In this document: one piece after another, positions 3,704 to 64,000 of the stretch
Position numbering within the stretch: the stretch's first letter is position 1
Layout of the letters: each line of letters begins with the position of its first letter
Assembly: GCF_018446385.1 (NCBI RefSeq)
Contig: NC_055989.1
Span: forward strand, 129,793,004-129,857,003
DNA from: Zingiber officinale
Lineage: Eukaryota > Streptophyta > Magnoliopsida > Zingiberales > Zingiberaceae
Length of the DNA stretch: 64,000 nt
Direction of reading: 5' to 3'
Notes under the pieces: generated by a model
Seen by the model: only the letters and a program-made list of their open reading frames with translations
What the model was told of the DNA's origin: nothing
The model's database searches: none
Program-made: the position numbers and the translations under genes

Positions 3704-4312
3704 AGTTTCACTATGAGGAGGCACATCGGAGCTGACTAGAGGTGACTTGAAGTGCACTAGAGGTGCCTCGGAGCTTATGGAAGGCGCCCTCATACGGATA
3801 AAGTTTGAAGTCTTCGGATTGGATAAGCATCATTGGAGGCGCCTCCAACACTGTTTTAAAAGAGGGTTCATCCAGGAGGTTAAGTACAACTTTTTTACAT
3901 GCTTCCTTGACCGTCTGGTTGCTTCGACTTCGTGTTACTACTATACTACAACGCTGCTATGCTCGACCACTACAGACGAACCAACAATGACACCCGAGTT
4001 CAATCATTTCTCTGTCTCCATGTTGCTGTAACTTTAAATTAAGTCATTTATTGCTTAAGAAAGTGTAGGGTTGTTACACTGTCTTATTTGTATTAATTTT
4101 ACGATTGATTAGTGAATTATCCATCAAAAATATCTAAAGGATATGGGTTTTAGAGTAGGAGTCGTCAAAGGCTCCGAACCAAGTAAATCAACCGTGTTTT
4201 ATTTTTCATTTTCTTACTTTGTCCTTTTTCCGCTGCGCAGTTATTTCTCCTCTCTCACGTGCAAACGATCGTACAAGAGGTATCAGAGTAGGGTCACTCA
4301 CTCTAAAGTAGT
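3704..4312 (+). mobile_element. Copia LTR 3' part with primer-binding site
   Basis: This is the end of a further copia LTR. A perfect 12-bp palindrome GGAGGCGCCTCC lies near 3836-3847, followed by a TATA-like TTTTAAAAGAG. The LTR ends GATCGTACA at 4275 and is followed by a primer-binding site resembling GGTATCAGAG (4279-4288), complementary to initiator tRNA-Met. The leader continues to 4312, where the gag-only element at 4313-8488 is inserted, and resumes at 8494. Confidence 0.6.
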
Positions 4313-5338
4313 TGTAGGACTCTTGCGGCCGACTAGAAGGGGGGGTTGAATAGCCCTGAAAAATAAATGAAACCCTTTCTCGAACGATTAAACTAACACT
4401 TGAAAAATAGATTAAGTAGAAAATAACGCATAAAAACGAGGCACCGGATTTGACTTGGTTACAACCGGGGAGGTTGTTAATCCAAGGAAAGGATGAAGCG
4501 CACTATCAATCTCCTTCAGGCGGAGAAGCCTCTTACAACGTTGAAGTACAAAAAGAAAGAAGCTAATCTAAACAGTGGAAAGCACACAAGCGTTTTTACA
4601 ATTTCTGAACTGATGAGAAGCTTCTGGACCAAGGCTATATTTATAGCCTTGGTCGGGGCGCCTGGAAGGGGTTCCGGGCGCCCTGGGGGGATAAAATTTT
4701 ATCCCCAACGTTCAGATCACGTTTGACGCGATCTGGTCAACAAAACGGGTCCGGGAGCCCGGAAGGGTTCCGAGCGCCCCGGGCCGCTCCGGGCGCCCCG
4801 GACTGTTCCGAGCGCCCCGGAGCCCAAAGTCACCCGATGTTGACTTTTTCATCTGGGGACCACTGCTCCGATTCGGTTCAGCTCGGTCCGGGTCTTCTAC
4901 TCCAGATCCGTTCGCTTGGGTGATCTCTGCCGTCCGGAAAAGGGCTCACCCGAACCCAACTTCCGGTCTTCTCGAGCGTGCTTCCCTCCGGCTTCTCGTC
5001 TCTCGGAATCGCCGCGTGTTTCCTTCTCGTCCACCAGCATACTCATCCACAGTCTTCGTCCCTCGGTCTTCGACCTTCTCGCTAGCTGCATCTCTTGCTC
5101 CCCGAGCAATCTTCCGCTCTGGCTTTCGTCCCTCGGAACCACCGCGCGCTTCCTTCTCGTCTACCGGGGTACTCTTCCGCAGCACCTCGTCCCTCGGACT
5201 GTCGTCCTTCTCGCTAGCTGCGTCTTCCGCTCGACTACCTTTGCTCCTAAGCTCTTGCACACTTAAACACAAGGTTAGAAACACACAGGACCTAACTTAA
5301 CTTGTTGATCACACCAAAATAACCTTGGGGTTCCAACA
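4313..5338 (-). repeat. 3' LTR of gag-only copia copy 1
   Basis: LTR of 1026 bp on the minus strand, starting TGTAGGACTC and ending GGGGTTCCAACA on the plus strand. It contains the GGCGCC palindrome cluster (about 4656-4820) and the TATA-bearing palindrome. The GC-rich 4880-5260 part is made of diverged subrepeats containing CTCGTCC...TTCTCGCTAGCTGC. Long open frames in this part are present on both strands and recur in every LTR copy. They reflect composition and are not called as genes. Confidence 0.85.
4627..4848 (-). promoter_or_regulatory. LTR core promoter: TATA palindrome and TTGAC inverted pair
   Basis: On the minus strand the TATA box lies inside a 28-bp palindrome at 4627-4654: 13-base arms GACCAAGGCTATA and TATAGCCTTGGTC around two bases. 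About 170-200 bp upstream in LTR sense (4826-4848) is an inverted pair of TTGAC-type boxes (AAAGTCAC...GTTGACTTT). TTGAC is the core of the WRKY W-box. The GGCGCC words lie between the two. The layout is seen directly; regulation is inferred. Confidence 0.6.
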
Positions 5339-6111
5339 ATCTCCCCCTTTTTGGTGTGATCAACCCAAGTTAAGCTAGGATTATAATAGACATAAAATTA
5401 AGTGAATTAACTTAATTTGCAATTTAAGGGCAAAAAGATAGATAAGAAAAAAATTAAATCTATCTACCTACCTCCCCCTAAACTTATACTTTCCCTTCTC
5501 CCCCTTTGATCACAAAAAAAATGGGGTTCCAAGAAAAACAATCTAAGGGTTAAAGACTTAGAAAAATGATCTAAGTAATTTAAGCTGAGATTTTCTAGTT
5601 TCAGGAAAAAGTTTTTAACTTAAAAAAAATAATTTTTTGAGAATTTTTCTAAGTAAAAAAAATCCTAAGTAACAAGTTTTTGAAACAGAGTAAAAAATCC
5701 TAACTAAAATTTTTAGAATTTTTTAAGCACATTTTTTTAAAAAAATTACTTAGGCAAAAAAATTCTAAGTAAGTAAATTTCTAAATTGAAATGAAATGTT
5801 TTGAATAACTTTTTTTTAAAGCACTAATTAATTCTTGTATTAATGCTTTATTAGTAAGTTAATTAAACATTTATTTCAATATTTTGGCTTCCAGGTCGTG
5901 GTGAGGCACTAGGCCTTCTTAGTTATTGGAGCAACAACCACTTCTTTGACAAAGTCTCATAAAGAAATTCTTTGTTTAATTTTCTCACTTAAAGCACTAC
6001 TTTTAATTTTGAAATTTAGTTTAAGCATGATTTAGGAACCCAATATAGGTTCCGACCTACTGGATAAACTAAGAAGTTTTTAGGGACATATTTTCTTGAA
6101 ATGTTCCTAAT

Positions 6112-7464
6112 TTATCCCGGGTGATATTTAAAGTACCAATTTAAATTATTAAATATTCTAAAATTGGTTTTAGATGAACATGCATAGTTTTTCAAGTTAT
6201 CTACTTGAATTTTCAAATCATTGTTTTCAAGTTTCAATTTTTCATTTTCCAATTTTGATTTATCTAATTCTTCTAGAGGGCGGGATTTAGCTAAAATTAT
6301 TTTTAAATTTTTTATTTCTTTTTCTAATTTACAGTAGTCTTTAGTTAATAACTTAACAAATTTATAAAGTTTATCGGGAGGAAGAGAACGTACCTGACTT
6401 ACCTTGTCGAGTTCGTTGTCCATGTCTCCCCCTGAACTACTGCTGTCTTCTGACGAAGCTCCCCCTTCATCGATGCTCTCGGTGCTCATCTCGGAAGAGC
6501 TTGAATTGCAGTCGTCGTCTTGATGACTCGCCATCAGTGCGAGTCCGGAGAATGCTTCGACTTCTGATTCGGACGACGTATCGTCCCACGTCGCCTTTAG
6601 GGCCTTTCGCTTTTGAATAGGTTTCTCCTAGTCGTTGTTCTTCAGCTTGGGGCAGTTGTCCTTGACGTGCCCTTCTTCGTCGCAGTGGTAGCAGCGGATC
6701 GTTCTTTTCTTCTTTCCCTGCGGATGGTTAGTAGATCTGGATTTACAAAGTTTCTTGAATCTTCTTACCATCATTACCATTTCCTCGTCGTCGATAGAAG
6801 ATTTCGACTCAGGTTCGTCTCTCGAAGCTTTGAGGGCGACGTTGTTCTTGGGCTCCTTCATTCCTGCACATCTTGACTCATGCATTTCAAATGTTGAAAA
6901 AAATTCTTCTAATGAAATTTTTTCTAAGTCCTTCGAAATGTAAAAAGCATCTACTAGTGATGCCCATTTTGAATTTCTTGGAAATGAATTTAACGCGTAC
7001 CTGAGCGAATCTCGGTTACTTACCTTTTCTCCGAGATTCGTGAGTCCGGTGATGATTTCTTTTATTCTGGAGTGCAGATGTGTGACTGTCTCGTCTTCCC
7101 CAAGTCGCAGGCTGGTGAGCCGATTGCGAAGCAGATCTCGTCTAACAAGCTTGGCTTCGGACGTACCTTCGTGCAGCTCGAGGAACTTCTCCCAAAGTTC
7201 CTTTGCGGAGCTATAGTTCCCAATCCGGTTGACTTCTTGAGGCGGAAGAACGCTTAGCAGATGGAATTCTGCTTTGCCGTTCGCTACGAAGTTGGCCTGC
7301 TCCTTTTTTATCCATTGATATATTTCCTTGTTCTCTGAAGCTTCAAAGCCAAGTTTCATTATTAAAATTAATTCAATATCAGTGGTAAAGAATACCTGCA
7401 TGTGCTTTTTCCAGGTGGCGAAATTCCCTTCGAATTTCGGCGGGTGGATGCTTGGTCCGGCCAT
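6112..7464 (-). pseudogene. gag region of gag-only copia copy 1
   Basis: The gag begins with MAGPSIHPPKFEGNFATWKK, the start of the UBN2/copia-type gag domain. It continues through the NRIGNYSSAKELWEKFLELH and LRYALNSFPRNSKWASLVDA blocks to a CCHC zinc knuckle (CYHCDEEGHVKDNC), which packages RNA. A serine/acid-rich stretch and a lysine/glutamate/leucine coiled coil follow. The polymerase genes that normally follow gag are absent, so the element would depend on enzymes from another copia element. The region has about one break. As a gag fossil its family is clear. Confidence 0.8.
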
Positions 7465-7520
7465 CTCGTTGTTTCGTTCGGCAGTTAGTCCTCCTGAAGT
7501 GCCTTAGCTCTGATACTACT

Positions 7521-8488
7521 TGTAGGACCGTTGCGGCTGGTTAGAAGGGGGGGTTGAATAGCCCTGAAAAATAAATGAAACCCTTTCTCGAACGATTAGG
7601 CTAACACTTGAAAAATAGATTAAGCAGAAAATAACGCATAAAAATGAGGCACCGGATTTGACTTGGTTACAACCGGGGAGGTTGTTAATCCAAGGAAAGG
7701 ATGAAGCACACTATCAATCTCCTTCAGGCGGAGAAGCCTCTTATAGCGTTGAAGCACAAAAAGAAAGAAGCTAATCTAAACAGTGGAAAGCACACAAGCG
7801 TTTTTACAATTTCTGAACTGATGAAAAGCTTCTGGACCAAGGCTATATTTATAGCCTTGGTCGGGGCGCCCTGGGGGGATAAAATTTTATCCCCAACATT
7901 CAGATCGCGTTTGACGTGATTTGGTCAACAAAACGGGTCCGGGCGCCCGGAAGGGTTCCGGGCGCCCCGGAGCCCAAAGTCAACCGATGTTGACTTTTTC
8001 ATCTAGGGGCCACTGCTCCGATTCAGTTCGGCTCGATCCGGGTCTTCTACTCTGGATCCGTTCGTTTGGGTGATCTCTGCCGTCCAAAAAAGGGCTCACC
8101 TGAACCCAACTTCTGGTCTTCTCGAGCGTGCTTCCCTCCGGCTTCTCATCTCTCAGAATCGCCGCATATTTCCTTCTCGTCCACCAGCATACTCATCCGC
8201 AGTCTTCGCCCCTCGGTCGTCAACCTTCTCGCTAGCTGCATCTCTTGCTCCCCGAGCAATCTTCCACTCCGGCTTTCGTCCCTCGGAACCACCGCGCGCT
8301 TCCTTCTCGTCCACCGGGGTACTCTTGCGCAGCACCTCGTCCCTCGGACTGTCGCCCTTCTCGCTAGCTGCGTCTTCCGCTCGACTACCTGTGCTCCTAA
8401 GCTCCTGCACACTTAGACACAAGGTTAGAAGCACATAGGACCTAACTTAACTTGTTGATCACACCAAAACAACCTTGGGGTTCCAACA
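7521..8488 (-). repeat. 5' LTR of gag-only copia copy 1
   Basis: LTR of 968 bp, minus orientation, from TGTAGGACCG to GGGGTTCCAACA. It is shorter than its partner at 4313-5338 mainly because it has fewer GGCGCC-word units in the 7865-7975 region. The shortening illustrates how this palindrome cluster changes length while the flanking LTR sequence stays alignable. Confidence 0.85.
7835..7998 (-). promoter_or_regulatory. LTR core promoter: TATA palindrome and TTGAC inverted pair
   Basis: The 28-bp TATA palindrome is at 7835-7862, and the inverted TTGAC pair (AAAGTCAAC, CGAT, GTTGACTTT-like) is at 7976-7998. The arrangement matches the partner LTR, with fewer GGCGCC words between. Confidence 0.6.
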
Positions 8489-13810: not shown

Positions 13811-14708
13811 TGTAGGTCCCTTTGGAGGCCGGCAAGAGGGGAGGGGTGAATTGCCCTACAAAAAAAAAACTAACAACCCTTCCTCAACGATTAAGCTAAC
13901 ACTTGTAAAATGAATTAAGCAGATAAATAAAAGCATAAAAGAAAAGACGAGGCACCAGATGTTTACTTGGTTACAACCGATGTGGTTGTTAATCCAAGGA
14001 AGATTAAGCTCAAAAACTCCTTCAGGCGGAGAAGCCTCTTACAGCGTTTAGGCACAGAAAACAGAAGCTTAACTACAACTAAAGCATACAAGTGTTTGGA
14101 AATAGAATGATCGTGATTGTTGAAAAGCTTCTGGACCAAGGCTATATTTATAGCCTTGGTCGGGGCGCCTGGAAGGGTTCCGGGCGCCCTGGGGGGGATA
14201 AAATTTATCCCCCAACGGTTGGATCGAGTCAAAGCTCGATCCTGTGAAAAAGTCACTTCCGGGCGCCCCGGACAGTTCCGGGCGCCCCGGAACCAAAAGT
14301 CAACCCAGTTGACTTTTGGTCCGTGCTCTCTTCTCCGGTTCAGCTCGCCTCGGTCCGGGTCTTGTTCGCTCCGGTTCCGCCAGCTTGGGTGATCTCGGCC
14401 ATCCGGAATAGGGCTCACCCGAACCCAAGTCTCGGCCTTCTCCTCGAGCAGCCTTCCTTCCCGGTTTCTCGTCCCTCGAACGCCGTGCACGTTCTTCTCG
14501 TCCACCGGTGTACTCTTCCGCGGTCACCTCGTCCCTCGGACGCACCGAGCCCGTCGGCTCTCTCCCCGTGCCGTCCTTCTCGCTAGCCGCGTCTTCCGCT
14601 CGACTTCCTGTGTTCCTAAGCTCCTGCACACTTAGACACAAGGGTTAAACAAATGCAGGACCTAACTTAGCTTGTTTGATCACATCAAAACACCTTGGGG
14701 TTCCAACA
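13811..14708 (-). repeat. 3' LTR of gag-only copia copy 2
   Basis: LTR of 898 bp, minus orientation, from TGTAGGTCCC to GGGGTTCCAACA. It shares the TATA palindrome, GGCGCC words and GC-rich subrepeat part with copy 1, but is clearly a different subfamily in its first 60 bases (GGAGGCCGGCAAGAGGGG). Confidence 0.87.
14134..14320 (-). promoter_or_regulatory. LTR core promoter: TATA palindrome and TTGAC inverted pair
   Basis: The 28-bp TATA palindrome is at 14134-14161. The inverted TTGAC pair at 14292-14320 has 13-base arms ACCAAAAGTCAAC and GTTGACTTTTGGT around CCA, a near-perfect hairpin. Confidence 0.62.
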
Positions 14709-15310
14709 ATCTCCCCCTTTTTGATGTAAGCAACCCAAGTTAAGTTAGGGTAACCATATGCAATAAAAACAATTTATATTCAAATAAGTCCAAGTATTTT
14801 TCAAATGAAAAATTATATTACCTCCCCCTAGACTTAACATACTTCTCCCCCTTTGATCACATAAAAATTGGGGTTTTAAACAAGTCTAAGGTAAATTCAA
14901 ACAAAACTTTGTTTGAAAAAATTTAAGTAAAACATTTTTCAGATAAAAACAGTCATAAGTGTTAAAAAAAATTTTAAGTTTGAAACTTAACATTCCCAAA
15001 AAAAATTCTAAGTTAATATTCATAAGAAACAATTCTAAGATAACTTTCAAAAAAAAAATTCTAAGTCAAGTTAAAAATTTTAAATATTTTCTAACACAAA
15101 TTGAATAACCCTTTTAAACATTAAGTAATTTAAATTAATACTTTTTCAGTTAATCAATTAAACTTTTCATTTCGATACTTGGCTTCCAGGTCGTGGCGAG
15201 GCACTAGGCCTTCTTGGTTATTAGAGCAACAACCACTTCCTTAGACAAAGCCTCATAAAGAAATTAGTTGTTTAATTTCCTTGCTGAAAATTCTAAGTCT
15301 AATTTTAATT

Positions 15311-16747: not shown

Positions 16748-16804
16748 CTTGTTGCTTCGATCGACAGTTAGTCCTCCTGAAGCACGCCTTGCTCTGATAC
16801 CACT

Positions 16805-28650: not shown

Positions 28651-28651
28651 A

Positions 28652-40812: not shown

Positions 40813-40948
40813 GGCCGCAGTAGGCGCCATTTTTGGGAGACTGAAAGAGGACGAGGTTTGGGTGAAGAATGGGTAGGTCTGACTCTCGTACACCTGCAGT
40901 TTAGTCTGTAGATGCAAAGGAAGTAGGCGGTACATTTAAAGAGACTTT

Positions 40949-42565: not shown

Positions 42566-42906
42566 TTCTATTCTTAAATTTATTTCTCACGTTCAATTTA
42601 TTATTTTAGCCGACCCAAGGATAAGACTTATCTCTCATAGCGATTATGATTTATAATCGTTATACTATGATTCGTACAACATGAGCATGGTTGAAATTCA
42701 TGATAAATACTATGTTTAAGTTGTTAAAAATATGTACTAATAATTTTTTTTTTAAAAAAAAATAATGAATCGGACAACATTGAATCTGGAATGATCGGTT
42801 TAATTTTATAGAAAATTTTCATTGACTACTAGAATAATTATAAATTATATATAAATGGTTATAATGTGTTAGTCAATAATATATTATAGTAATTATAAAT
42901 TATACC
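42566..42906. other. AT-rich interval, no feature seen
   Basis: AT-rich sequence between the solo LTR and the hAT transposon, with nothing recognised except a short poly-T/poly-A inverted run near 42745-42765. Confidence 0.5.
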
Positions 42907-52343: not shown

Positions 52344-52403
52344 AGTGGTATCAGAGCAAGGACGCCTCAGAAGGAGTACTAACTGCCGACTGAAGCAACG
52401 AGA

Positions 52404-53230
52404 TGACCGAAGCTAACATCTACCCACCAACGTTCGAGGAGGAGTTTGCGTTTTGGAAGTGACGAATGGAGGTATTTCTTAAAACAAATTTTAATATTTT
52501 ATTAATAATGAAATATGGTTATAAATCACCAAAGAACACAAATGGAGAAGAAATTGAAAAATACATCTGGACCAAAAAGCAACGCGGTGATTTTACGTCA
52601 AATGGTAAGGCTGAATATCATTTAATAAGCGTATACTGGTGGAGGAACTCGACAGAATCGGCAACTACCAAAGTGTGAAAGAACTTTAGGAAAAACTCTA
52701 GGGACTTTAAATATATGCCTAAAAATAGAAATGCTCATAGGGGTCAAGAAAAATCCAAATCTATGGATTTAATGACGGAGAATCAAGTCTTGAGGTCAAG
52801 ACTTGATAACTTAGAAAGGACCCTAGCAAGAATGAAAAATATTCTTAAAGGTCAAAATGAGCAAACTCTAGGGAGAACTAGGCAAGAGTCATCCAATGGC
52901 TATAGAGGTTTGGGATACAAACCTAAAGTCAAGAAGGATGTAACTTCCTTTCATAGAGTTCCATATAGCTATGGGACCAACCCTAGGTTTAGAGGTCAAG
53001 TCAAAGATACTAGGGAAGGAAGCCCTAATGGTTCTTTTGGCAAGACCAATGTGACCAAGACTTCTAAGAAGTCTAACAAAGTCACAAAGAAGGTCACAAG
53101 GGAGGTCATCCCTAAAGTTGATCTAGTAAAGGTGACTAAAGCTCCAAAAGGCCAAACAAAGTCGCAAAGAAGGGTACAAGGGAAGTTATCCCTAGGAGTG
53201 ACTTAGTAGAAGTGACCAAGGTTTCTAAGA
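52404..53230 (+). pseudogene. gag-like remnant of the pol-less copia element
   Basis: The region begins with a decayed copia gag start and a KTNFNILLIMKYGYKSPKNT block, followed by a coiled-coil/basic part (DLMTENQVLRSRLDNLERTL and a lysine-rich tail) as found late in SIRE-like gag. The central gag domain and knuckle are largely missing, and no polymerase follows. Broken in several places. Confidence 0.6.
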
Positions 53231-53389
53231 AGCCTAGAAAGGTCCTTAGGAAGGTATTAAGGGAAGTTATCCCTAGTGAGTACCTAGAGTACCCAAGGAG
53301 CACCAATAGGTTTTGGGTTCCTAGGAGTATATTTTCTACACCCTAGATGGGTTTAGAAAGTGTCAACTTCAATTGGAAGGGTAATTAAC

Positions 53390-54190
53390 TCAACCTTGTT
53401 AAAAGTTGACACTTGAGAGCATTTTCAAGGTTATTGTTAACCTTTGAAAATGAAAGGGATTATAGTGTTACTCTTTGAAAGAGTAAAATGTGTCACAATT
53501 TGAGGAGTTGAATTTAATTTAAATTGACACACTTGTGAGAAGCAAAAGAAATGTCAAATTGGGAATTCGGTATTTTCTTATAGAATTAAGGGAAATGTAA
53601 ACCTTAATCCAAATTGTTACCCTTGGAAAGAGTAACATGTGCCAAAACCTAAGAAAATTGGATTTAGTTTAACTTGGCACAATTGGGAAAATGTAAGAAA
53701 TACCAAATTGGAGTTTTGGTATTTTCTTAGGGTAATTAAAGGAAAACTAAGTTCTAATGTTTGATTGCATTTACTCTTTAGAGGAGTAAAATGTGCCAAG
53801 TCTTGAGGAATCGGACTTAAATTTAAATTATCACAAATGCAAAAAGAAATACCAAGTTGGGAATTTGGTATTCTAGTGAGGGGTTAAGAAAAAATTCAAA
53901 CCTTAATCAAACTAATTACTCTTTGGAAGAGTAAGGTGTGTCAAATCTTGAGGAATCACATAAAAGGTAAGTTGGCACACTTGGAGGAAGGATAAGAAAT
54001 GTCTAGTTGAGATATTAGTATGTTCTTAAGGGATTAAGAGTAAAATTAAGTCTCAATCTAAATGTTTGATCCTTAAAGAGAGTAATATGTGTCAAATAAA
54101 TATTTGAGGATTGACTTCTTAATTTCAATTGGCACAAATAAAAAGGAGGTAAAAGAAATGTCAAGTTGGGTTTTGGCATTTCTTCAAGAG
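53390..54190. repeat. Tandem array, unit about 150 bp, about five copies
   Basis: Each unit has ACTCTTTG.AAGAGTAA.ATGTG (near 53473, 53620, 53773, 53920 and 54071), then GTTGGCACA-like text, an AAGAAAT(G/A)(C/T)CAA(G/A)TTGGG phrase and a poly-A rich part. Units are well diverged, so the array is old. It is non-coding and lies where pol would be expected. Confidence 0.85.
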
Positions 54191-55623
54191 ATAAGCAATC
54201 TAGGCTTAATTTTAAGGTTTTAGCTAAGGTTTAAGAATACTTAGATAGATTATCTAGGTATATTTCATTTATGCTAAAATTCCATGATTGATTGCTTATT
54301 ATATGTCATGACATCATATTTATTTTTGCATTCATTTCTATTATGAAAAACATAAAACAAAAATATCATGTCATGTCATACATACATTATGTAGCTATAG
54401 CATGCTTTTCTTTTGAAAATTATTTATTTTGATGTATGCCATTGATCATCATGCATTATGTCAATTTCCTTGTAATTAAGGACAAAAGACATTTATCATG
54501 AATGATAAATATCCCAATTAGTGGGATTATACCAAATGACATCCTAGGTGGATGATCATAAGTCTCTTAATGCATAGATAGATATGCATGATCCCTTAGT
54601 TTAGGGCAAAACCAAATATACATCTCACAAAAAATCATAAGGTGGATGGTATGTGTTTTAGTACACATTAGATACAAGTGAGATGTTAGGATGGTGAACA
54701 AAACTCAAGATGTTAATTTAGTGCATCTTGTTGAGTTTTAGGTTCATCAAAAACACATAGTTATGTGTCTTCCAATCATTGGGAAAGCTCAAGTACAAGT
54801 CATGTGCATTGAGCGCAAAGAACATGGTTGGATATTGATTTTGAAAATGATTTTAAAATACTTTTGGAAAACCTTGGTGAAGACTATCTTTTAATAATGA
54901 TCATCATTGAATAGTTAGACACAAACTTGAAGAAAACACTAAAATTTTTACAACTTTTTAAATTTGTGTCAATCTTTGAAAATAAGAAGTATTTTCATAG
55001 AAGACTATTTTTCCTTGATAAAGTATACCCTAAATAATGTCTACATGAATTTTCATGATTTTTAGAATTTTATAGAATTTTTGGAGAGTTTCTGAATTTC
55101 GCTGAAATTGAATTTCAGGAAATCAGAAACACAATCGATCAGCCGATCGATTGGGATGTGTTCGATCGATTAGCCGATCGATTGGGAAGCCATTTCCCGC
55201 GAACAGAAGGGCATTGAATCGATCAGTCGATCGTTTGACCCAGGCTGGATTGATCAGTGGATCGATTCAGAGGGTATTTCTGCAAGCAGTAGCTTGCGGA
55301 ATCGATTAATGGATCAACTGAAGTGATTTCAATCGATTGAGTCCCAACTTCAATCGATTGGAAAGTCTGATTTTGGCCTGAAAAGCCTGATTTCAGCACT
55401 TCAAGTCACTTTGAGTCCTAATAACCATTCCAAACCCCTTGGAATATATTTGTAGACATTTAGGGGGAGTTTTCATGATAAAAACAAGTATGGATTGGTG
55501 AAAATAAACCAAAGTGAAGTTTAGGATAAGGTCTAGTTCAATTCTGAATTTTGGAACCTTAAAACTTCAAGTTTTGGTTTTCAAGGGTCACTAACCATTC
55601 CTAACCCTTTGGCATACACTTGT
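54191..55623. other. Non-coding interior of the copia nest with ATCGAT words
   Basis: No gene. Bases 55130-55375 contain a cluster of ATCGATCAGCCGATCGATTG-like palindromic words. Bases 55425-55600 are a diverged direct repeat of 55600-55623 plus 58414-58560 (ACATTTAGGGGGAGT, AAGTTTAGG..., TTAAAACTTCAAGTTTT), a unit of about 180 bases now split by the gypsy solo LTR. Confidence 0.6.
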
Positions 55624-58413
55624 TGTCACGCCCCAGAGGAGTCTCTGTCCGAAGAAATTTCGGCAGCATCTCCCCTGTACGGCGGACAATATGAAACTTT
55701 CTACATATCACATATACATCAGCCACAGGCGGCTGGAATGATAACAAAAGAAAAAAATAAATACAAACACCACGCAGTTAATAAAGATATCCAGCCTCTG
55801 GCTGTCACAACCACGCAGTTAATAACAGTAATCAATAACAATAGGATTCTGACTCAAAATCCACCCTACTCCACTACACTCGTAAAGCTCAAATTCAACG
55901 AACTCACCTCTTCTGCCATCCAGGCAGGCACGTAGTAGAATGAAATCCAATATCATATCAAAAATCCAACAAAAGGTATCACTCCATACAATATCAATAG
56001 GAAAAAAAAATCCAAAGACAATACTAAATCAAAGTCTGATAAAGAAAAAGGCCAAAATAAAACAAATAATGATCTAGTAGAGAACTAGCTCCACGTGCAG
56101 ATGGGGGGCCAGCGACTGGAACTGCTCCGGACAGCCTCAACCTGAAAATATCAACAATGGAGGCGGGGTGAGTCCAACACTCAGCAGGTACAACTGATAT
56201 ACATAATAAAACAAATAACAGATAACACTAATCATGCGTACAGTCTCCTGAATACGAGAAGGAATAAATGCAACTGAAATGAAATCAGGAGATAACTGTA
56301 CTAACCGGAATCAAGGTACAAAGGTAACAGGTCGTCAGACCGGAGAAATCATAATCCTGTATGCATGTCAATCAAATGCATCCATACAAATGCAGCATAT
56401 AAGTGCAGCAATCACAACAATATAATGCAATAAATGCATATGGTGACCGTGCACTCGGACATCACTGCTCCTGACAGTTACTGAGTTTGGAGTACTCCTG
56501 TCCTCTGGCCCCAACTCATAAATGGGGGAGCTCAATGCTCTCATCTCCCGGTACATAATGACGGGGAGGATATCTCTGCCGGCTACCACGCTGAGTCATC
56601 TGACCAACGGAGCCAAACAAAGTCCACCATCTGCCGGCTACTACGCTGCTACACTAAATGCCAGCGGAGCCAAACAGAGCGGAACTGACTGCCGACTACC
56701 ACGCTAAGTCCTCAGACCAACGGAGCCAAACAGCAGAACCGCCACACACCTGTCTGATATACCACTAACCCATGGGTGGTGGTGGTGTGTGCAGTACATG
56801 TAACTGGCGATGGGCTCGACCATAGCGGAGCCAACAATCGCACAGCATGCAAACATGATGCATGACACTAAGCATGACAATCTCATGAATAGCATAGTAA
56901 GATCCATACATAAATACAAGGTGTACTACAGGTCAATGTATCAAATGGAAGGTACACAAACAGATGGGGTATCATATAAAACCCTAGGTCCAGAACATGA
57001 TGTATCACATGGTTGGGTCACTACCGGAAGCATGTATGGTCAGATAAATAACAATATGCAGGGTATAATAAATAAACAAATAACATGTAACAGATCATGT
57101 AGTGACCAACCGAATAAAATGGAAAACACAATTCTTGTTATATGTTAAACACTTTATTATGCATATCAAAATACATAAGTCAAAGTACCCGCCTCCGAAA
57201 ATAGAAAGGTCCGATCTGTCCAAATCCGGACGTCGAGATACTCGTCTCGCGTCAAGGTCCTGTGATACCAATACACAGATATTTTATTTAGCTAAAAATT
57301 CAAATGAATTGCTAAATAAAATTCCCAACATAATTTAGGACAAAACCCTAAGTCATAATCATTTACCTACCTAATTAAACACATATAATTTAGTTACTCA
57401 ACATGTATCAAATAACTAAATCAAACTCCTAATTCAATTAGGGAAACCCTAATTATTGATCAACCTTAACTAATCATCAATTAACTTATCAACATCAAGA
57501 CCTAAATCCACAAACATTAAACCCAAAAACCTTACCTTTCACTGATCTCTTGGTTCAATCCGTATCACCAACACCTGTAAACATTCTAACAAGCATAAAG
57601 ATTCTGGTGGAGCTAAAAGTGATCAGACAAGAGATCGAATCTATGCTTACCCCTAAGTGGCTACTATTGACTCCCAGCAAAAACACAAATTCAGGCAGCC
57701 TGTACCAACCAACAACAGCAACACTGAAGTCTCAAACCACACAGAAACCCTAGGTCAGCGCTGGCGAAAAGAAGAAAAGGGAGAACCTCGGCTCGACAGA
57801 ATTCTGCGACCTCCACTAGAGCTCACGATAACCAGTGCTAGGACTACGGCAGACAAGGCTTCGGCTGGACAGAGGAGAGAAGAATCAACGTCACTGGAAT
57901 CGGGGCAGAGGCTAGGGCACCGGCGATTGGGGTCGGCGTCGGCTTCTGTGGTCGACGTCGGGTGGCTAGGGCAGGCGGTCGGGCGGCGGTGATTTGCGGC
58001 GACGGCGCTAGGAACTCCACGGCAAGGCTAGGGCAGAGGATGGATCGCCGACAATGGCTTGCGCTCGCCGGCGCTTGGGCAGGGCCGGAGAAGAAGAGAA
58101 GAGGCTCGGGAGAAGTAACCGCCGCCGGCGGTTAGGGCAAGGAGGAAGAAGGGAGACGGCGTCGGGCTCGGGTGTGAGGAGGGGGAAGAAACGAAGGTTT
58201 TAAAGAAATTAAAAAGAAAAAGAAAAAGGAAAAAGAAAAAGAAAAAAAATAAAACTTTTCCTTATTAAAACTGGATAGCCTAAACAGGCTTTTCCGGACC
58301 CCGTTCTTATCCCCGTCAACTCGTCCGTACGAGCTCCGAAAAATTCCCGAAAAATGTCCAAAAATTCCGTAAAATTCCCTTATTAAAAATCGTCATTTTT
58401 CCGGTATTTTACA
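55624..58413 (-). mobile_element. Gypsy solo LTR
   Basis: 2790 bp in minus orientation from TGTCACGCCCC to GGTATTTTACA, with a perfect target duplication CTTGT at 55619-55623 and 58414-58418. Its two ends match the ends of the long LTR at 19909-23530 (GGGGGCGTGACA and TGTAAGATAC), and the GAGCTCGTACG phrase is shared, so both belong to one family with strong divergence in between. The inner part 57900-58180 is GC-rich with CCGCCGGCGG. The frames there are not genes. Confidence 0.88.
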
Positions 58414-58739
58414 CTTGTATCCATTTAGGGGGAGTGTTCATGTTGAAAGCAAGTATAGATTGGTTAAGGTAGACTTAGGTGAAGTTTAGGTTGAGGTTTA
58501 GCTTCTTTATTGAATTTTGAACCTCAAAACTTCAAGTTTTTGTTTTCCTAATTATTTAGGAACCCCAAGTCGTTGTTGGTGCAATGATAGAAATTTGACC
58601 ATGTTTTTAGGGGGAGTTACTCTTTGAAAACATAAAAATCTTTTCAAAGACTTTAGAAGGGGGTTAAACCTTCGTAATGAATTAATACTCAGAGTCGAGT
58701 ATTGGGGAGCAATGGAAGATTGGTTATCTTCATTGCTAG

Positions 58740-59000
58740 GATGATAAATGCTCTCGGATGAGCATTGTGAAGAAGATTATTGCTCAAGGGGGAGCATTGG
58801 GTTAATGAAGGGGATCAGACCTTCATTGGTAAAGTGAAAAATGCTCTCGATTGAGCATTGTGAAGACGATTACTGCTCAAGGAGGAGCAGTGAATACAAT
58901 GAATGGGAGTTTCATTGGGAAATTGACGAATGCTCTCGGATGAGCATTGTGAAGTGAAGTAGAGCTCAAGGGGGAGCATTGGCGGCAATGAAGAATATGA
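58740..59000. repeat. Tandem repeat, unit about 90 bp
   Basis: AATGCTCTCGGATGAGCATT occurs near 58748, 58840 (one change) and 58931, each followed by GTGAAG and a GCTCAAGGGGGAGCA phrase. Each unit contains a self-complementary ATGCTC...GAGCAT core. Non-coding, in the interior of a copia element. Confidence 0.85.
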
Positions 59001-59159
59001 GATCTTCATTGTAGGGTTGTTAACAACATATGAGGTTGTAAACAATGAAGAATTAACTCTTATGGAGAAGAGTTTGTTTTCTGATTTGATGTGTGACAAA
59101 GGGGGAGAATGGAAGGTTAAGTTAGTCCTTCATCTCAAGCAGAGGGAGTTTGCCCTCTA

Positions 59160-59312
59160 GGAAAGAGAAGAGATTAAGGCTATGAGATTTGACCTTGGTA
59201 TAGAGAAGAGATTAATGCAATGGGATTTAGCCTTGGTATAGAGAAGAGATTAAGACTATGGGATTTAGTCTTGGTATAAAGAAGAGGTTAAGGCTATGAG
59301 ATTTAGCCTAAC
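59160..59312. repeat. Tandem repeat, unit about 38 bp, four copies
   Basis: Units of GAGAAGAGATTAAGGCTATG then GGATTTAGCCTTGGTATA, four copies with few changes. They lie just upstream of a polypurine tract and copia 3' LTR. Confidence 0.88.
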
Positions 59313-59347
59313 TTAGAGGAATTGTCAAATATCAAAAAAGGAGAGAT

Positions 59348-61052
59348 TGTTGGGGCAATTTCCCTAGGTCATGTTTGATCAGTTTGACTAAGCTTGAGTT
59401 GGGTCAAGCTTGAGTCGAGAATTGAGTTTTGATGCTTGACAATGTATGGAGATTGCTGGAGCAATCGTCCGATTGTGGAGATGGTCAAGGGATTGACCAA
59501 GTTGATAAAAAGATAAGTCAAGTGGGTCGGTGTTGACCAGAGACTTGACCGGGTAAGTCTTAACTGGAGATTAGGCATCTGGGAAAGTCCTAACTGGAGG
59601 TTAGGCAAGAAAGAAGTCAAGTAGGTCAAGGTTGACAGGAGACTTGACTGGGAAAGTCTTAATTGGAGATTAGGCAAAAGTAAGTCCAACAGGAAGGTTG
59701 ACAAGGGTGAAAATCCAAGTAGGTCAGTGTTGACCAGACTTAGTGGTGAAAGTCCTGATAAGTGAGATCAGGCAATTGGAATGTCCTAGTATAGCTAGGC
59801 AAAGGGAAAGTCCTGGTGAGGAGCCAAGCAACTGGAAAGTCCAAGTGTGATCTTGGCAAAAGGAAAGACCTGGTGAGGAGCCAGGCAATTGGAAAGTCCA
59901 AGTGTGATCTTGACAAAGGTTGTAAGTTCAAACACGTGGTCTTTGCAAGGTAAGTTCTAGTGTGACTTGGCGAGGAGAACCCGACAACTAGGAGAAGGCC
60001 GATAGAAGCTCCAGAAGGCAAGGCGTGAAGGATGGGAGATATCTGAGGGACGCAAGGTTGATGGAGTAGGCTAGAAGGCTAGTTCGAGGTTGGTCGGGAG
60101 TAGCCAAATGCTAGGCGTGCAAACCTAATAGGTCACGGTTGACAGGGAGTTAGGTTTAGGAAGTTGGACTTGAGTTTGAGTCAAGTCCAGGGTGTTCAAT
60201 CGATCGGGCGATCGATTGAACAGGCTCCAATCGATAAGCCGATCGATTGGAGTATGCGCGATTGTTGGAATGACCCAATCGATCAGCCGATCGATTGGGG
60301 TCAGGAAATCGTGAGCACAGAAGCTCTCCCAATTGATCGGGTGATCGATTGGGAGCTGCCAATCCATCGATTGATCGATTGGGCAGGGGTGTTCTCGCGC
60401 GATCGCGAGAAGCACAGAATGCTTCTGGATCGATCCACCGATCGAACCCGATGTTTCCAATAGATCGGTCGATCGATTGAGATTCGACCGTTGCGCAGGA
60501 TGCAGGTGGTGGACGGCTGGGATTGTCCGGATGTGACGTGGCAATCAATTGAGGATGAATTCAATCGATTTGAGCTACTGTATAAAGCCCAGGCGGAGCT
60601 TTTTCTCAGTAGATCTCTTGCGATCTTTTGCGCCCGTCTTCAACGATTCACAGCGAGCTTCTCCGATCTACTCACGCCAATTCTTGAAGGCACTTGGGGA
60701 GTTTCTCCAAGGTTTAAGAGGCGACGACAAGCACAAGTAAGCAAGAAGAAGGGTGTATTACATTGTATTTTTGTTTCTTCTTGTTGTGTTCGTGTTTGTG
60801 TTTGTGTGTGAGTACGAGGCTTCTCCGCCTCCGGCTGCGACCGAGAAGGAGGTTTTCATTAGTGGAGTGAGCGTGTCGTGTGGATCCTTGGATTAGTCAC
60901 CTCTTCTTGAGGTGGATACCAAGTAAATCCTTAGTGTTAGCTTTGTGTGTGTCTTGTGTTTATTTCCGCTACATATTATCAAGACGAAGCAACCGACAAG
61001 CGCGACCAAACGCTATTCACCCCCCCCTCTAGCGGACATCAAGGTCCCAACA
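59348..61052 (+). repeat. Complete copia LTR, ATCGAT-word family
   Basis: 1705 bp from TGTTGGGGCAAT to CAAGGTCCCAACA, preceded by a polypurine tract AAAAAAGGAGAGAT, so it is the 3' LTR of an element whose 5' part is lost. The left half has AAGTCCTAACTGGAGGTTAG repeats (59560-59900). Bases 60190-60560 are a dense cluster of ATCGAT/CGATCGATTG words, just upstream of the TATA box CTGTATAAAG near 60579. The tail has the GAGGCTTCTCCGCCT leader shared with the other copia LTRs. Flanks do not form a target duplication. Confidence 0.78.
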
Positions 61053-61360
61053 AGAATCTCAATTTTTTCATATCATTCGATCTCTTTAATATTTAATTAT
61101 TCTACAAGAGTTATCCCTGCTAACTAAGAAAACTTTTCTGAAAGTTTTTTTAAACATGATATTTTTTTAAAAAAAAAAATTTGAAATTATAAATCTTGAA
61201 AATGTATTTTCTTCTGTCAAAATGCATGCTCTACTACATTTTTCAGAAAATATTTCAAGATTTCCAAAATTGTTTTAAATCTTTCACTTTCTTTTTTTTG
61301 AGTATTCTCTTAGACTTGTGTTTAACATTCACAAAATTTTTTAAGTCATTTTAACCTTAT
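61053..61360. other. AT-rich remnant between two LTRs
   Basis: AT-rich, no gene; it includes the first CTTAT target duplication (61356-61360) of the following solo LTR. Probably interior sequence of the old copia element. Confidence 0.5.
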
Positions 61361-62411
61361 TGTTTGAGCAATCCCAATGGTCCGTGCGATCATGTGTTTT
61401 GGTATTTGAGCAAAGAGTTTAAGTTAGGTTCACTCTTATATTTGATATGTGTATTTGAGTTGTGCAGGTTTACAGGATATACATATGACTCAGGTTGATG
61501 GCTTTAGATCCAGTGAAGGATGGAGCATCCGATGGACTGTGGACAAAACAGCAAGGACAAGGGCTAAGGGAAGCGACTTCTAGGCATACGCGAAGGATGA
61601 CATTGGGGGCGAGCTGCAGGCTTGGATGCATCCGAGGGACGAGAGTCAAAGGAAGTAGGCTTGAAGGCTAAAGGTCAAGGCTGCAATGAAAGGTCAAGTG
61701 AGTCATGAGGGTACGAGTGCATGAGAGATTGTACTCAAGGTAAAATCCTAAGTTTAGGGTTTTACTGCAGCAGTACTGCAACAATTACTGTAGCAGTTAC
61801 TGTACCAGTCGACTGCTAGTTTCACCAGTTAACTGGTGCAGTCGACTGGGAGCGAATAGAATGCTTCTGTTTGTTCGAACAGTGTGAAGCAGTCGCCTGC
61901 TAGTTTTAGCAGTCGACTGATATTGAGCCGTTGGGATATAACCGTCGAATTTCCACAAGATGACAGTCGACTGATGGTTTTGGCAGTCGATTGGTAGACG
62001 GGGTTTCCAATCCGCGACCTATATAACCAAGGCTTAGGAGCTTGGTTATAGTTAACAAAATTAGTAGTGGTAAACCCTAATTAGTAGTCTACTAGTTCTC
62101 AGGTGCTTGTGAGTGTTGTGGTGAGGTTTCTCCACCCACAAGGAGCGACTTGAGATAGCCGGAGTTTGCCGGGGGCTAATCCACCGATGGATAGGGATCG
62201 TCCACCTTACGGACAGCCGTGGCGTAGGAGCTCTAATCTCCGAACCACGTTAAACGAATTTGTTAGCGGTTTGCATTTCCTTTTTTAGTTTTAGTCTTTA
62301 GCTTGTTTGTTTTGTTTGTATTCCGCTGCGCAAGCTAACATTGTAGGAAGCTATCGATTTGGGAGCGTCGTCCATTCAACCCCTCTTCTAGCCGTCCACC
62401 GATTCCTTACA
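61361..62411 (+). mobile_element. Copia solo LTR, GTCGAC-word family
   Basis: 1051 bp from TGTTTGAGCAATCC to GATTCCTTACA with a perfect target duplication CTTAT (61356-61360 and 62412-62416). Bases 61800-61995 hold a cluster of CAGTCGACTG and close variants, followed by the TATA box CTATATAACC near 62020. Related to the fragment at 2946-3703. No interior. Confidence 0.88.
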
Positions 62412-62647
62412 CTTATAACTTCATAATTTTGTTTGTTAAAGGACTTAAAATTTTTGAAAAATTACCCTTAGATTTTTTTTGGTACCCCATTTTTTATGTG
62501 ATCAAAAGGGGAAAAGGAAAGATTAAGTCTAGGGGAAGGTAGCTTAACTTTTTCAATTTTTGCACTTTATTGTAAAATTTATTACTTTTAATTTATGTTG
62601 GTTTACTCTAACTTAACTTGGGTTACTCACATTAAAAAGGGGGAGAT
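62412..62647 (+). mobile_element. 3' end of the pol-less copia interior
   Basis: Non-coding AT-rich sequence that ends in the polypurine tract AAAAAGGGGGAGAT next to the 3' LTR. It is the mirror of the sequence downstream of the LTRs at 5339-5520 and 14709-14870 in the gag-only elements, showing that these elements share 3' interior ends. Confidence 0.7.
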
Positions 62648-63747
62648 TGTTGGTACCTCAAGGTAGTTTTGATGTGATTAAACAAGTTAAGTTAGGTCAT
62701 GTTGTGTTTAACCTTGTGTCTAAGTGTGCAGGAACTTAGGAGCATAGGAAGTCGAGCAAAAGACGCAACTAGCGAGAAGGACGGCACGGGAGAGAGTCGA
62801 TGGGCTCGATGCTTCTGAGGGACGAGGTGTTGCGGAAGAGTACACTATCGAACAAGAAGGGAGCGTGCGGTGTTTCCGAGGGACGAGAAGCCTGAGCAAA
62901 AAATTGCTCAAGGAGCAAAAGACGCAGCTAGCGAGAAGGTCGGTACGAGAGAGAGCCGATGGGCTCGGTGCATCCGTGGAACGGAGAGCTGCGGAAGAGT
63001 ACGCTGGCGGACGAGAAGAAAACACGCGGTTATTCGGTGGGACGAGAAGCCGGAGCGGAAGCTTGCTCGAGAAGGTCGGAAGTTGGGTTCGGGTGAGCCC
63101 TATTCTGGATGACCGAAATCACCCAAGCGAGTGGAAATACCCGGACTGAAGCAAGCGGAGTCGAAGCTGAAGGCCCAAAGAGAAAGTCAACAAAATCTTG
63201 ACTTTCCCCTTTGGGGCGCCTGGAACGATTTCGAGCGCCCAGAGCAGTCTAGGGTGCCTTGAACCATTCCTAGCGCCCGGAGTAGTCCGAGCATCTGGAA
63301 CTCAAGTTTTAGCCATTTCGATGTGGTCTTTGACTGTTACATCGGGGATAAGTTTTTATCCCACTCCAGGCGTCTAAAACCCTTCCAGGCGCCCAACCAA
63401 GGCTATAAATATAATCTTGGTCCCAGAAGCTAAATACAACATTCATTCTTGCAACAACACTTGTACACATCTCAGTTTTTGTTTAACTTTTTATTTTCTG
63501 TGCTTTCACTGTTGTAAAGAGGCTTCTCCGCCTAAAGGAGAAACTAGTGCTACTTTATTCCTTTGATTAACAATCTCCTCGGTTGTAACCAAGTAAATCT
63601 CTGAGCTTCTGCTTTTCTGTTTATTTATTATTTAATGAAAGTAGTCTTTAATTAAGTTATTTGACTGAGAAAAGTATGTTTTGTTTTTATTTGTGCGGGG
63701 GCTATTCACCCCCCCCCCCTTCCAGTCGGTCGTCAAAGGTCATAACA
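62648..63747 (+). repeat. 3' LTR of the pol-less copia element
   Basis: 1100 bp from TGTTGGTACCTC to GGTCATAACA. Same order of parts as the 5' LTR but with more GGCGCC-type words (63214-63390), which accounts for most of the length difference. Followed by the second ATCAA duplication. Confidence 0.85.
63183..63422 (+). promoter_or_regulatory. LTR core promoter: TTGAC inverted pair and TATA palindrome
   Basis: The TTGAC pair is at 63183-63205 (AAAGTCAAC...CTTGACTTT) and the decayed TATA palindrome at about 63395-63422 (ACCAAGGCTATAAATATAAT then CTTGGT). The TATA core is intact although the arms now mismatch. Confidence 0.55.
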
Positions 63748-64000
63748 ATCAATTGGGAGCATTGCGAGAGTACAGTGAGGGCCAGAATTGACTGGGCTTG
63801 GGGTGATCGATTGAAGTATTTCCACAAGAGCATAGTGAGGTCTGGAATCGATTGATCAATCGATTGAGCTTAGGTCAATCGATTAATCAATCAATTGAGC
63901 TTAGGTTAATCGATTGAGCTTAGGTCAATCGATTGAGACAATTGATTAGAGTGCTTTTGTGAGAATGGAAAATTTTTTGGCCTTCTCAAGCAACCTTCAA
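63748..64000 (+). mobile_element. Copia LTR, continuation, ATCGAT-word family
   Basis: Resumes the LTR interrupted at 51299, starting with the second ATCAA. It is dominated by AATCGATTGA words in direct succession (63850-63955). It continues beyond the window. Confidence 0.75.

What the first reader, a model, noticed from the sequence alone, without database searches (positions are those of the whole stretch)
3720..63960. Copia LTR families share one layout but each carries its own CG-centred palindrome cluster before the TATA box
In at least eight copia LTRs a cluster of short self-complementary words sits directly upstream of the TATA-like site. The words are GGCGCC (4656-4820, 7865-7975, 14160-14290, 17157-17286, 41930-42190, 51858-51990, 63214-63390), GTCGAC/CAGTCGACTG (3110-3260, 61800-61995) and ATCGAT (60190-60560, 63850-63955). 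The three commonest words are six-base palindromes with a central CG; GGCACC/GGTGCC clusters (9240-9430, 19130-19370) look like CpG-decayed versions. The flanking LTR parts, such as the GAGGCTTCTCCGCCT leader, are shared between families. Cluster length also differs between the two LTRs of one element. This suggests a rapidly turning-over module, perhaps a site for a dimeric factor or a CG-methylation-sensitive switch. What is seen is the layout; function is inferred.
Basis: partly seen in the sequence, partly recalled or inferred. Interest (0 to 1): 0.8.

Follow-up and report, generated by a model that had tools for sequence, protein, structure and literature searches.

The report
Palindrome arrays in Sirevirus LTR promoters
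The clustered palindromes just before the promoter of these plant jumping genes are real and very abundant, but they are the known repeated palindrome boxes of the Sirevirus group; what seems new is that some of them change their sequence while keeping their two halves complementary.

Summary
ATCGAT, GGCGCC and GTCGAC form clusters upstream of the TATA site in copia LTRs of this 3.09-Gb genome, enriched 14-, 9- and 6-fold over dinucleotide shuffles in 59 sampled Sirevirus-type LTRs. The class "six-base palindromes with central CG" is not enriched: the other 13 words together give 126 against 122.8 expected. The hexamers are cores of longer inverted repeats.

The elements pass five non-coding Sirevirus tests (PBS junction, PPT/attachment site, multiple PPTs, C-rich signal, inverted repeat round the PPT). 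Family-specific palindromic motifs before the Sirevirus TATA box were published in 2010 (PMC2829016). So this is a known feature in a new host.

Additions: (1) arms of the ATCGAT dyads and of a second, distal hairpin array covary (0 of 1000 within-LTR arm swaps), whereas GGCGCC and GTCGAC do not; (2) inverted W-box pairs occur in 34 of 59 Sirevirus-type LTRs and 0 of 21 controls; (3) one 16-base hairpin pattern occurs 103,372 times.

Rapid turnover is plausible, not proven: 9 of 20 confirmed LTR pairs show bursts of difference whose spectrum fits assembly error as well as biology. Methylation and factor binding could not be tested.

The parts
4313..8488 (-). Element A, gag-only Sirevirus-type element, TSD GTAGT; LTRs 4313-5338 and about 7517-8488
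4627..4654 (-). TATA site of A inside a 13-bp-arm dyad (GACCAAGGCTATA-AA-TATAGCCTTGGTC)
4656..4820 (-). GGCGCC palindrome cluster of A (3' LTR)
7865..7975 (-). GGCGCC palindrome cluster of A (5' LTR)
13811..17703 (-). Element B, gag-only Sirevirus-type element, LTRs 98.4% identical, TSD CATAT
17129..17156 (-). TATA dyad of B (5' LTR)
17157..17286 (-). GGCGCC palindrome cluster of B (5' LTR), two pairs spaced 19 bp
17188..17208 (-). GGGGGATAAATTTTATCCCCC palindrome between the GGCGCC pairs
17287..17315 (-). Inverted W-box pair ACCAAAAGTCAACTGGGTTGACTTTTGGT upstream of the cluster
14160..14290 (-). GGCGCC palindrome cluster of B (3' LTR)
51300..63747 (+). Element C/D, TSD ATCAA, LTRs 51300-52343 and 62648-63747 (83% identical), with other repeats between
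51834..51858 (+). Inverted W-box pair GAAAGTCAACAAAATGTTGACTTTC of C
51859..51990 (+). Degenerate GGCGCC-type palindrome cluster of C
63207..63394 (+). Degenerate GGCGCC-type palindrome cluster of D (borders approximate)
60195..60480 (+). ATCGAT dyad array, e.g. TTCAATCGATCGGGCGATCGATTGAA (strand from the order array, TATA word, leader)
60581..60586 (+). TATAAA downstream of the ATCGAT array; leader GAGGCTTCTCCGCCT at 60816
61806..61973 (+). CAGTCGACTG cluster, four exact copies; TATATA at 62020
3136..3236 (+). GTCGAC cluster upstream of an AT-rich TATA-like site
63846..63937 (.). TCAATCGATTGAGCTTAGG array downstream of element C/D; not shown to lie in an LTR
41930..42190 (-). GGCGCC cluster (AAGGCGCCTC type); strand from similarity of 42242-42569 to the minus-strand LTRs A and B
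59589..59856 (+). AGTCC hairpin units (CCTAAC..GTTAGG, CCTGAT..ATCAGG, CCAAG..CTTGG) upstream of the ATCGAT array

Best explanation
The clusters are the repeated palindromic motifs of Sirevirus LTRs. The U3 promoter of these copia elements is an array of inverted repeats that ends at the TATA site. The most likely function is cis-regulation: short family-specific palindromes (GGCGCC, GTCGAC types) and shared fixed dyads (inverted W-boxes; in one cluster of families also a GATAAA palindrome and a TATA dyad) serve as sites for dimeric host factors that drive transcription of the element. A second class (ATCGAT dyads, and a distal array of AGTCC hairpins) keeps complementarity while its sequence changes, so there the inverted repeat itself is what is kept or regenerated. 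Shown: position, enrichment, dyad symmetry, covariation of two classes, Sirevirus hallmarks. Inferred: factor binding, regulation, and the link to small RNAs reported for maize Sireviruses.
For: Sirevirus hallmarks: PBS junction, terminal PPT AGGGGGAG-AT-TG and extra PPTs, C-rich LTR end (CCCC in the last 60 bases of 56 of 59 Sirevirus-type LTRs and 3 of 21 others), inverted repeat round the PPT in A, B and D scoring 24, 20, 21 against shuffled maxima of 12, 12, 14, copia gag with zinc knuckle. Position: 223 against 85.5 expected upstream of TATA, 24 against 22.1 downstream, in 40 of 59 LTRs; none of the 21 PBS-sharing control LTRs has more than 3 copies of one CG palindrome. Imperfect dyads 5.3 per 1.8 kb against 0.34-0.56 in block-shuffled sequence. 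Inverted W-box pairs: 117 in 34 of 59 LTRs, shuffled mean 1.15, control word 3; 0 in 21 others. Genome: CAGTCGACTG 84,304 places against 3,325 for the word read backwards; GATCGATC-N4-GATCGATC 103,372 against 51. Same layout published for other Sireviruses; a review passage reports WRKY binding to W-boxes in the ATCOPIA93 LTR.
Against: No expression, binding, methylation or small-RNA data were available. GGCGCC and GTCGAC flanks do not covary within LTRs (711 and 133 of 1000 swaps reach the observed value). No excess of G.T over A.C in stem mismatches overall (53 against 68, p = 0.20); in cluster 1 it is 2 against 14, on copies that are not independent. The 21 control stretches hold even more dyads (6.8 per stretch), about 70% of them more than 900 bp from the LTR end; no shuffle or base composition was made for them. 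Control LTRs show some excess of CG palindromes too (15 words at 400-500 bp, 2.6-fold; 10-13 words in three bins beyond 800 bp, 2.3-4.3-fold). The last 100 bp of Sirevirus-type LTRs also show a 2-fold excess that the model does not explain. Cluster 3 has no inverted W-box pair in 15 LTRs. The 80 LTRs come from the first 4.1 Mb of one contig, not from a random draw.
Confidence: 0.68

Rival explanations
1. The inverted-repeat structure itself is selected: the transcribed or single-stranded U3 folds into a row of hairpins used in the element's life cycle or read by the host as a source of small RNAs.
For: Arms of the ATCGAT dyads (ATTGAT and ATCAAT cores included) and of the distal AGTCC units covary: observed 0.584 and 0.959 paired against 0.472 and 0.686 in within-LTR swaps, 0 of 1000 reach it; real beats swapped in 19 of 19 LTRs (17 of 19 if only four flanking positions are used) and 18 of 18 LTRs. 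Folding z of the zone -6.3 (sense) and -6.9 (antisense) against -1.0 in R/U5 and -1.5 in the same zone of the controls. Passages in PMC5311732 and PMC10760457 report small-RNA hotspots on the palindromes of maize Sireviruses.
Against: GGCGCC and GTCGAC do not covary, GATCGGTC dyads weakly (14 of 1000), short distal units beat their swaps in only 11 of 16 LTRs. Folding z differs by cluster, -2.6 in cluster 1 to -10.6 in cluster 2, and control R/U5 also folds (-2.7, 9 of 21 below -3). No G.T excess on the sense strand. U3 lies upstream of the start site in the 5' LTR, so the genomic RNA holds it only once, near its 3' end (recalled retroelement biology).
Confidence: 0.3
2. Mutational by-product: slippage, template switching and inverted duplication, for instance in reverse transcription, build and correct inverted repeats, so arms stay complementary without any function.
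For: Complementarity is kept while the sequence changes, without wobble asymmetry overall. In one LTR pair the 3' LTR (L083) carries a 51-base inverted copy (94%) of an array segment, about 80 bases from the direct copy, that its partner L016 lacks; it includes non-palindromic spacer, so it is not just a palindrome matching itself. LTR pairs differ in array length.
Against: The dyads concentrate before the TATA site in the four Sirevirus-type clusters and are nearly absent from R/U5; W-box pairs keep a fixed sequence in three of four clusters. The inverted duplication is one case, in a pair whose target-site duplication was not checked, and could be an assembly fault.
Confidence: 0.25
3. One reading: CG-centred six-base palindromes as such are the module, a CG-methylation-sensitive switch or dimer site.
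For: Three CG-centred words are enriched 5.9-14.4-fold upstream of the TATA site.
Against: The other 13 CG-centred palindromes together are not enriched (126 against 122.8); distal dyads (CCTAG..CTAGG, CCAAGTA..TACTTGG) and the W-box and GATAAA dyads have no CG centre.
Confidence: 0.1
4. The apparent fast turnover between the two LTRs of one element is mainly assembly or base-calling error in methylated, hairpin-rich repeats, not biology.
For: In 9 of 20 TSD-confirmed pairs, picked by eye from the profile, the zone differs by 10.55% with Ts:Tv 1.33 and 54 of 133 indels of one base, distal U3 by 5.00% and R/U5 by 1.15%; in the other 11 pairs 3.55%, Ts:Tv 2.95. In the one pair searched genome-wide, one LTR's block is private (next best 84% among 40 scored of 1351 candidates) while its partner's has relatives at 93% (40 scored of 4392; one partial match at 97%), so no donor copy was seen.
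Against: The expected mark of a methylation-linked error is weak: of 460 short edits in 11 pairs 72 exchange CG for CHG, 116 only gain or lose CG, 272 do neither. The clean pairs still show the zone to be the most diverged part. Two elements with an identical 270-bp R/U5 differ by 28% there, although either may carry errors.
Confidence: 0.5

Closest known systems
Repeated motifs (RM boxes) of Sirevirus LTRs (Bousios et al. 2010, PMC2829016; section 9 and passages seen)
   Same: Palindromic motifs, many copies, mostly an own word per element, upper half of the LTR, CpG-rich, shortly upstream of a conserved TATA box. The Vitis word CGGTCGACCG is found 8 times in 3 of 59 LTRs; CGGTC-N2..4-GACCG, a wider-spaced form of the Osr8/Osr10 words, 33 times in 11 of 59 (and 5 times in the 21 control stretches); Tnd-1 core AATCGATT 10 times in 8 of 59, shuffled 1.6.
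   Different: Of the 12 distinct published words (13 elements) only the Vitis word was found in full; 11 were not. CAGTCGACTG and GGATCGATC-N4-GATCGATCC are not among them. Arms of the ATCGAT class covary.
Palindrome-rich cis-region of maize Sireviruses Ji, Opie, Giepum (Bousios et al. 2016, Genome Research; not held; known here only through citing passages in PMC5311732 and PMC10760457)
   Same: Palindrome-rich regulatory zone of the LTR, high sequence variability, predicted secondary structure.
   Different: There tied to small-RNA mapping; no such data here. The maize word CACCGGAC-n-GTCCGGTG is absent from our 59 LTRs.
W-box/WRKY-driven LTRs, such as ATCOPIA93 (review passage, PMC12786077)
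   Same: TTGAC cores in the LTR promoter.
   Different: Here as inverted pairs in 34 of 59 LTRs, and no binding was tested.

Membership tests
Sirevirus (Ty1/copia) | 5' LTR/PBS junction CA-A(T/G)TGG-TATCAGAGC | tested here: met
   B and C exact; A with one difference; 77,642 places in the genome; the junction alone is not decisive, since 21 of 80 sampled LTRs with it are not Sirevirus-like
Sirevirus (Ty1/copia) | PPT AGGGGGAG followed by AT and the TG of the 3' LTR | tested here: met
   A, B and D exact
Sirevirus (Ty1/copia) | several PPT octamers before the 3' LTR | tested here: met
   A 5341, 5472, 5498; B 14711, 14822, 14845; for C/D the extra copies lie at 58427-59107, in a stretch with other repeats
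Sirevirus (Ty1/copia) | inverted repeat round the PPT/3' LTR junction | tested here: met
   local scores 24, 20, 21 against shuffled maxima 12, 12, 14
Sirevirus (Ty1/copia) | C-rich signal near the LTR 3' end | tested here: met
   seen in A-D; CCCC in the last 60 bases of 56 of 59 sampled LTRs and 3 of 21 controls
Sirevirus (Ty1/copia) | large gag with central CCHC and downstream coiled coil | tested here: inconclusive
   Retrotran_gag_2 and zf-CCHC pass in A and B; coiled coil only as sub-threshold matches in B
Sirevirus (Ty1/copia) | pol phylogeny within the Sirevirus clade | not tested
   no pol match among the 10 frames; no RT was extracted from the genome
Sirevirus RM boxes | palindromic motif, many copies, upstream of TATA in the LTR | tested here: met
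Sirevirus RM boxes | CGG-CCG core (12 of 13 published elements) | tested here: inconclusive
   by eye met by TCCGGGCGCCCGGA and GATCGGTC..GACCGATC types, not by CAGTCGACTG and GGATCGATCC types
Sirevirus RM boxes | at least eight copies per element, identity commonly above 85% | not tested
   copies per element and identity within an element were not measured; counts of one exact CG hexamer in the last 1100 bp run up to 17

The most novel reading that the evidence does not exclude
Sirevirus U3 regions carry two kinds of inverted repeats: fixed-sequence dyads bound by host factors, and hairpin arrays in which complementarity, not sequence, is inherited, kept by selection for structure or by hairpin-templated correction and inverted duplication during reverse transcription. 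Such arrays could rewrite their own arms while staying palindromic, which would explain why families differ in their word.
Probability: 0.3. Interest if true: 0.65.

Novelty: new variant of a known kind. Interest (0 to 1): 0.42.

Why it matters
Sireviruses are a large part of some plant genomes (21% of maize B73 is cited in PMC10760457); here one 16-base hairpin pattern alone occurs more than 100,000 times. Whether the palindromes are switches for transcription, targets for silencing, or by-products of replication decides whether they are a handle on retrotransposon control. The covarying arms offer a direct test: change one arm, both arms, or both with pairing kept.

Tried and rejected
Inversion of the palindrome zone between the two LTRs of an element: of 9 pairs compared, 7 gave no minus-strand match of 30 bases or more; L008/L081 gave one (52 bases, 81%) and L016/L083 two (51 bases at 94%, 57 bases at 82%). 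The 94% match is not an inversion but an inverted copy beside a retained direct copy in the 3' LTR. Inversion rejected as a general mechanism; inverted duplication stands as one case.

Donor exchange between copies: for L137/L138 the 5' LTR block is private (84% next best, 40 of 1351 candidates scored) and the 3' LTR block has relatives at 93% (40 of 4392 scored), so no donor was seen; one pair only.

Module swap in L129 (R/U5 99.3% like L054, no match upstream): by eye L129 is interrupted by other sequence about 430 bp from the LTR end, not a swap.

Sense-RNA wobble signature: not found overall. Within-LTR covariation of GGCGCC and GTCGAC: not found; the pooled swaps (15 and 0 of 1000) had suggested it, so that signal came from differences between LTRs or from GTCGAC inside distal units.

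Rows dropped: 20 of the 100 listed PBS places were not fetched, 4 of 18 pairs gave no end match, and L055/L098 and L062/L100 were left out, 2 of 13 pairs could not be tested, the other 11 had the duplication; one search took those 11 plus 20 new pairs (two of them longer fetches of elements already held) and kept 20, dropping 11 without an identical 5-bp duplication, 19 of 59 LTRs had no TATA word. The split into 9 'messy' and 11 'clean' pairs was made by eye.

Literature: (Sirevirus with palindrom and LTR, hairpin, cis-regulatory, W-box) and wider searches. I saw the listings and abstract starts, and passages of PMC2829016, PMC5311732, PMC10760457, PMC3601003 and PMC12786077; no report of covarying palindrome arms in LTRs was noticed there. 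Only open-licence PubMed Central papers are held.


Full report
I checked the words first. Self-comparison and junction searches give three delimited elements with target-site duplications: A 4313-8488 and B 13811-17703 on the minus strand, and C/D 51300-63747.

What they are. A and B gave gag matches only (Retrotran_gag_2 and a zinc knuckle) and are short, with 2.1-2.2 kb between the LTRs. The PBS junction, the PPT with its AT/TG attachment site, extra PPT octamers, the C-rich signal near the LTR end and the inverted repeat round the PPT match the published Sirevirus features. No pol sequence was placed on a tree, so the assignment rests on non-coding hallmarks and gag.

Sample. The genome holds 77,642 exact PBS junctions, 43,754 exact PPT/3' LTR junctions and 12,597 exact leaders. 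I fetched the 1.8 kb upstream of the first 80 of the 100 listed PBS junctions. By similarity of the last 260 bases, 59 fall in four clusters, of which clusters 1 and 4 also hold the window LTR ends compared; 21 do not and serve as controls with the same PBS. CCCC occurs in the last 60 bases of 56 of the 59 and of 3 of the 21.

Enrichment. CG-centred palindromes exceed dinucleotide shuffles 2.5-3.7-fold at 300-800 bp from the LTR end, 1.67-fold at 800-900, and fall to 0.64-0.66 at 100-300; the last 100 bp show 2.05. Aligned on TATA (40 of 59 LTRs): 223 against 85.5 upstream, 24 against 22.1 downstream. Word by word in the stretch 300-900 bp: ATCGAT 221 against 15.3, GGCGCC 84 against 9.1, GTCGAC 55 against 9.3, CACGTG 12 against 4.2, and the 13 words other than the first three 126 against 122.8. 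LTRs with two or more ATCGAT belong to clusters 2 and 4, GGCGCC to 1 and 3, GTCGAC to 3 and 4. In the 21 controls one bin (400-500 bp) also shows 2.6-fold on 15 words, and three bins beyond 800 bp 2.3-4.3-fold on 10-13 words, but no control LTR holds more than 3 copies of one CG palindrome in the listing.

The unit. The hexamers are parts of longer dyads: TCCGGGGCGCCCGGA in A and B, CAGTCGACTG, GGATCGATC-N4-GATCGATCC and CCAATCGATC..GATCGATTGG, and in cluster 4 GATCGGTC..GACCGATC. Imperfect dyads of nine or more positions number 5.3 per 1.8 kb against 0.34-0.56 in block-shuffled sequence and are nearly absent (0.02-0.03 per 100 bp) from the last 300 bp. The control stretches hold 6.8 each, about 70% of them more than 900 bp from the LTR end, where some may lie outside the LTR; no shuffle was made for them. 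Genome counts: CAGTCGACTG 84,304 against 3,325 for the word read backwards; GATCGATC-N4-GATCGATC 103,372 against 51.

A second array. In distal U3 of clusters 2-4 lie tandem units of the form AGTCC-arm-loop-arm-GG. Of 314 AGTCC starts in the 59 LTRs, 76% have a perfect stem of five or more, against 6.5% in shuffled units; in the controls 20 starts, 20% against about 4%. In 54 units from 23 LTRs (none in cluster 1), anchored on words outside the arms, 16 distinct arm pairs match at 4.50 of 5 positions against 2.47 when arms are swapped, maximum 3.56 in 1000 swaps.

Covariation within LTRs. Swapping arms only among units of the same LTR gives: ATCGAT-type dyads, eight flanking positions, 0.584 against 0.472, 0 of 1000; distal long units 0.959 against 0.686, 0 of 1000; short units 0.961 against 0.863, 0 of 1000 but better than swapped in only 11 of 16 LTRs; GATCGGTC dyads 14 of 1000; GGCGCC 711 of 1000; GTCGAC 133 of 1000. 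Thus two classes keep pairing while sequence changes, and GGCGCC and GTCGAC do not. Stem mismatches show no G.T excess on the sense strand (53 against 68 overall; 2 against 14 in cluster 1, on related copies), so I do not claim an RNA structure. The folding energy z of the zone is -6.3 on one strand and -6.9 on the other, as expected for DNA palindromes too; by cluster it runs from -2.6 to -10.6, and control R/U5 stands at -2.7.

Shared fixed dyads. GTCAA-n-TTGAC, an inverted pair of W-box cores (the name is recalled knowledge), occurs 117 times in 34 of 59 Sirevirus-type LTRs, against a shuffled mean of 1.15 and 3 for a control dyad, and in 0 of 21 others; it is in clusters 1, 2 and 4 but in none of 15 LTRs of cluster 3. 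Cluster 1 adds a GATAAA palindrome and a TATA site inside a long dyad in part of its members.

Turnover. Of 33 LTR pairs examined (two of them re-fetched elements), 20 have an identical 5-bp duplication. Pooled substitutions in these 20 rise from 1.05-1.25% at 100-300 bp to 7-10% at 400-800 bp from the LTR end, with a second rise (4-7%) at 1200-1500 bp. But the pairs are of two kinds: 11 with 3.55% in the zone and Ts:Tv 2.95, about half of the changes being transitions at CG or CHG, and 9 with 10.55%, Ts:Tv 1.33 and many one-base indels, whose bursts reach into distal U3 (5.00%). This spectrum and a private block in the one pair searched fit base-calling or assembly error at least as well as biology, although CG-to-CHG exchanges make up only 72 of 460 edits. 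I therefore claim only a modest excess of change in the zone. One 3' LTR (L083) holds a 51-base inverted copy of an array segment that its partner L016 lacks: if real, a palindrome caught at birth.

Known and new. PMC2829016 (section 9 and passages seen) describes palindromic repeated motifs in 13 elements, upstream of a conserved TATA box, with CpG islands, and extra copies in the linker. Passages in PMC5311732 and PMC10760457 report for maize high variability, predicted secondary structure and small-RNA hotspots there, citing a 2016 paper that is not held. In the searches named under Tried and rejected I noticed no report of covarying palindrome arms, of the distal hairpin array or of the inverted W-box pairs.

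Mechanism. The best reading is a cis-regulatory array; the position before TATA and the fixed dyads argue for factor sites. For the covarying classes, structure or hairpin-templated correction is the better reading. Binding, methylation and small RNAs could not be tested with the tools at hand.

Noticed in passing
28084-30557: A 2.5-kb region that matches its own reverse complement at 86%, with AAAACGAGC-type repeats in both halves: a large foldback structure.
   Followed up: no
19914-21363 and 26651-28084: Direct repeats 97.6% identical, starts 6.7 kb apart, perhaps the LTRs of a further, younger element.
   Followed up: no
38927-40900 (-): Open frame of 658 aa with DUF2828 and DUF7788, probably a host gene.
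   Followed up: partly
36263-36964 (+): Open frame of 234 aa with C2H2 zinc fingers.
   Followed up: partly
G000 C1:1122220, 1425537, 1930332, 2156267: Copies of GATCGATCAGCCGATCGATC (or its complement) about 0.9-1 kb upstream of a PPT (places compared by eye), like the linker copies described for Sireviruses.
   Followed up: no
55134-55358: A further ATCGAT cluster (9 copies) that the finding does not list, inside element C/D.
   Followed up: no
L083 about 1066-1244 (locus as fetched), partner L016: Inverted duplication of about 50 bases of the ATCGAT array in one LTR only, with about 80 bases between the copies.
   Followed up: partly
L123-L126: Two PBS-PPT units in a row that seem to share the middle LTR (LTR-internal-LTR-internal-LTR).
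   Followed up: no
genome sample, clusters 5 and 6: Other LTRs share the exact CAATTGGTATCAGAGC junction (all 10 of cluster 5 and 4 of 5 of cluster 6 by the list) but lack the C-rich end and palindrome clusters, so the junction alone does not identify Sireviruses.
   Followed up: partly
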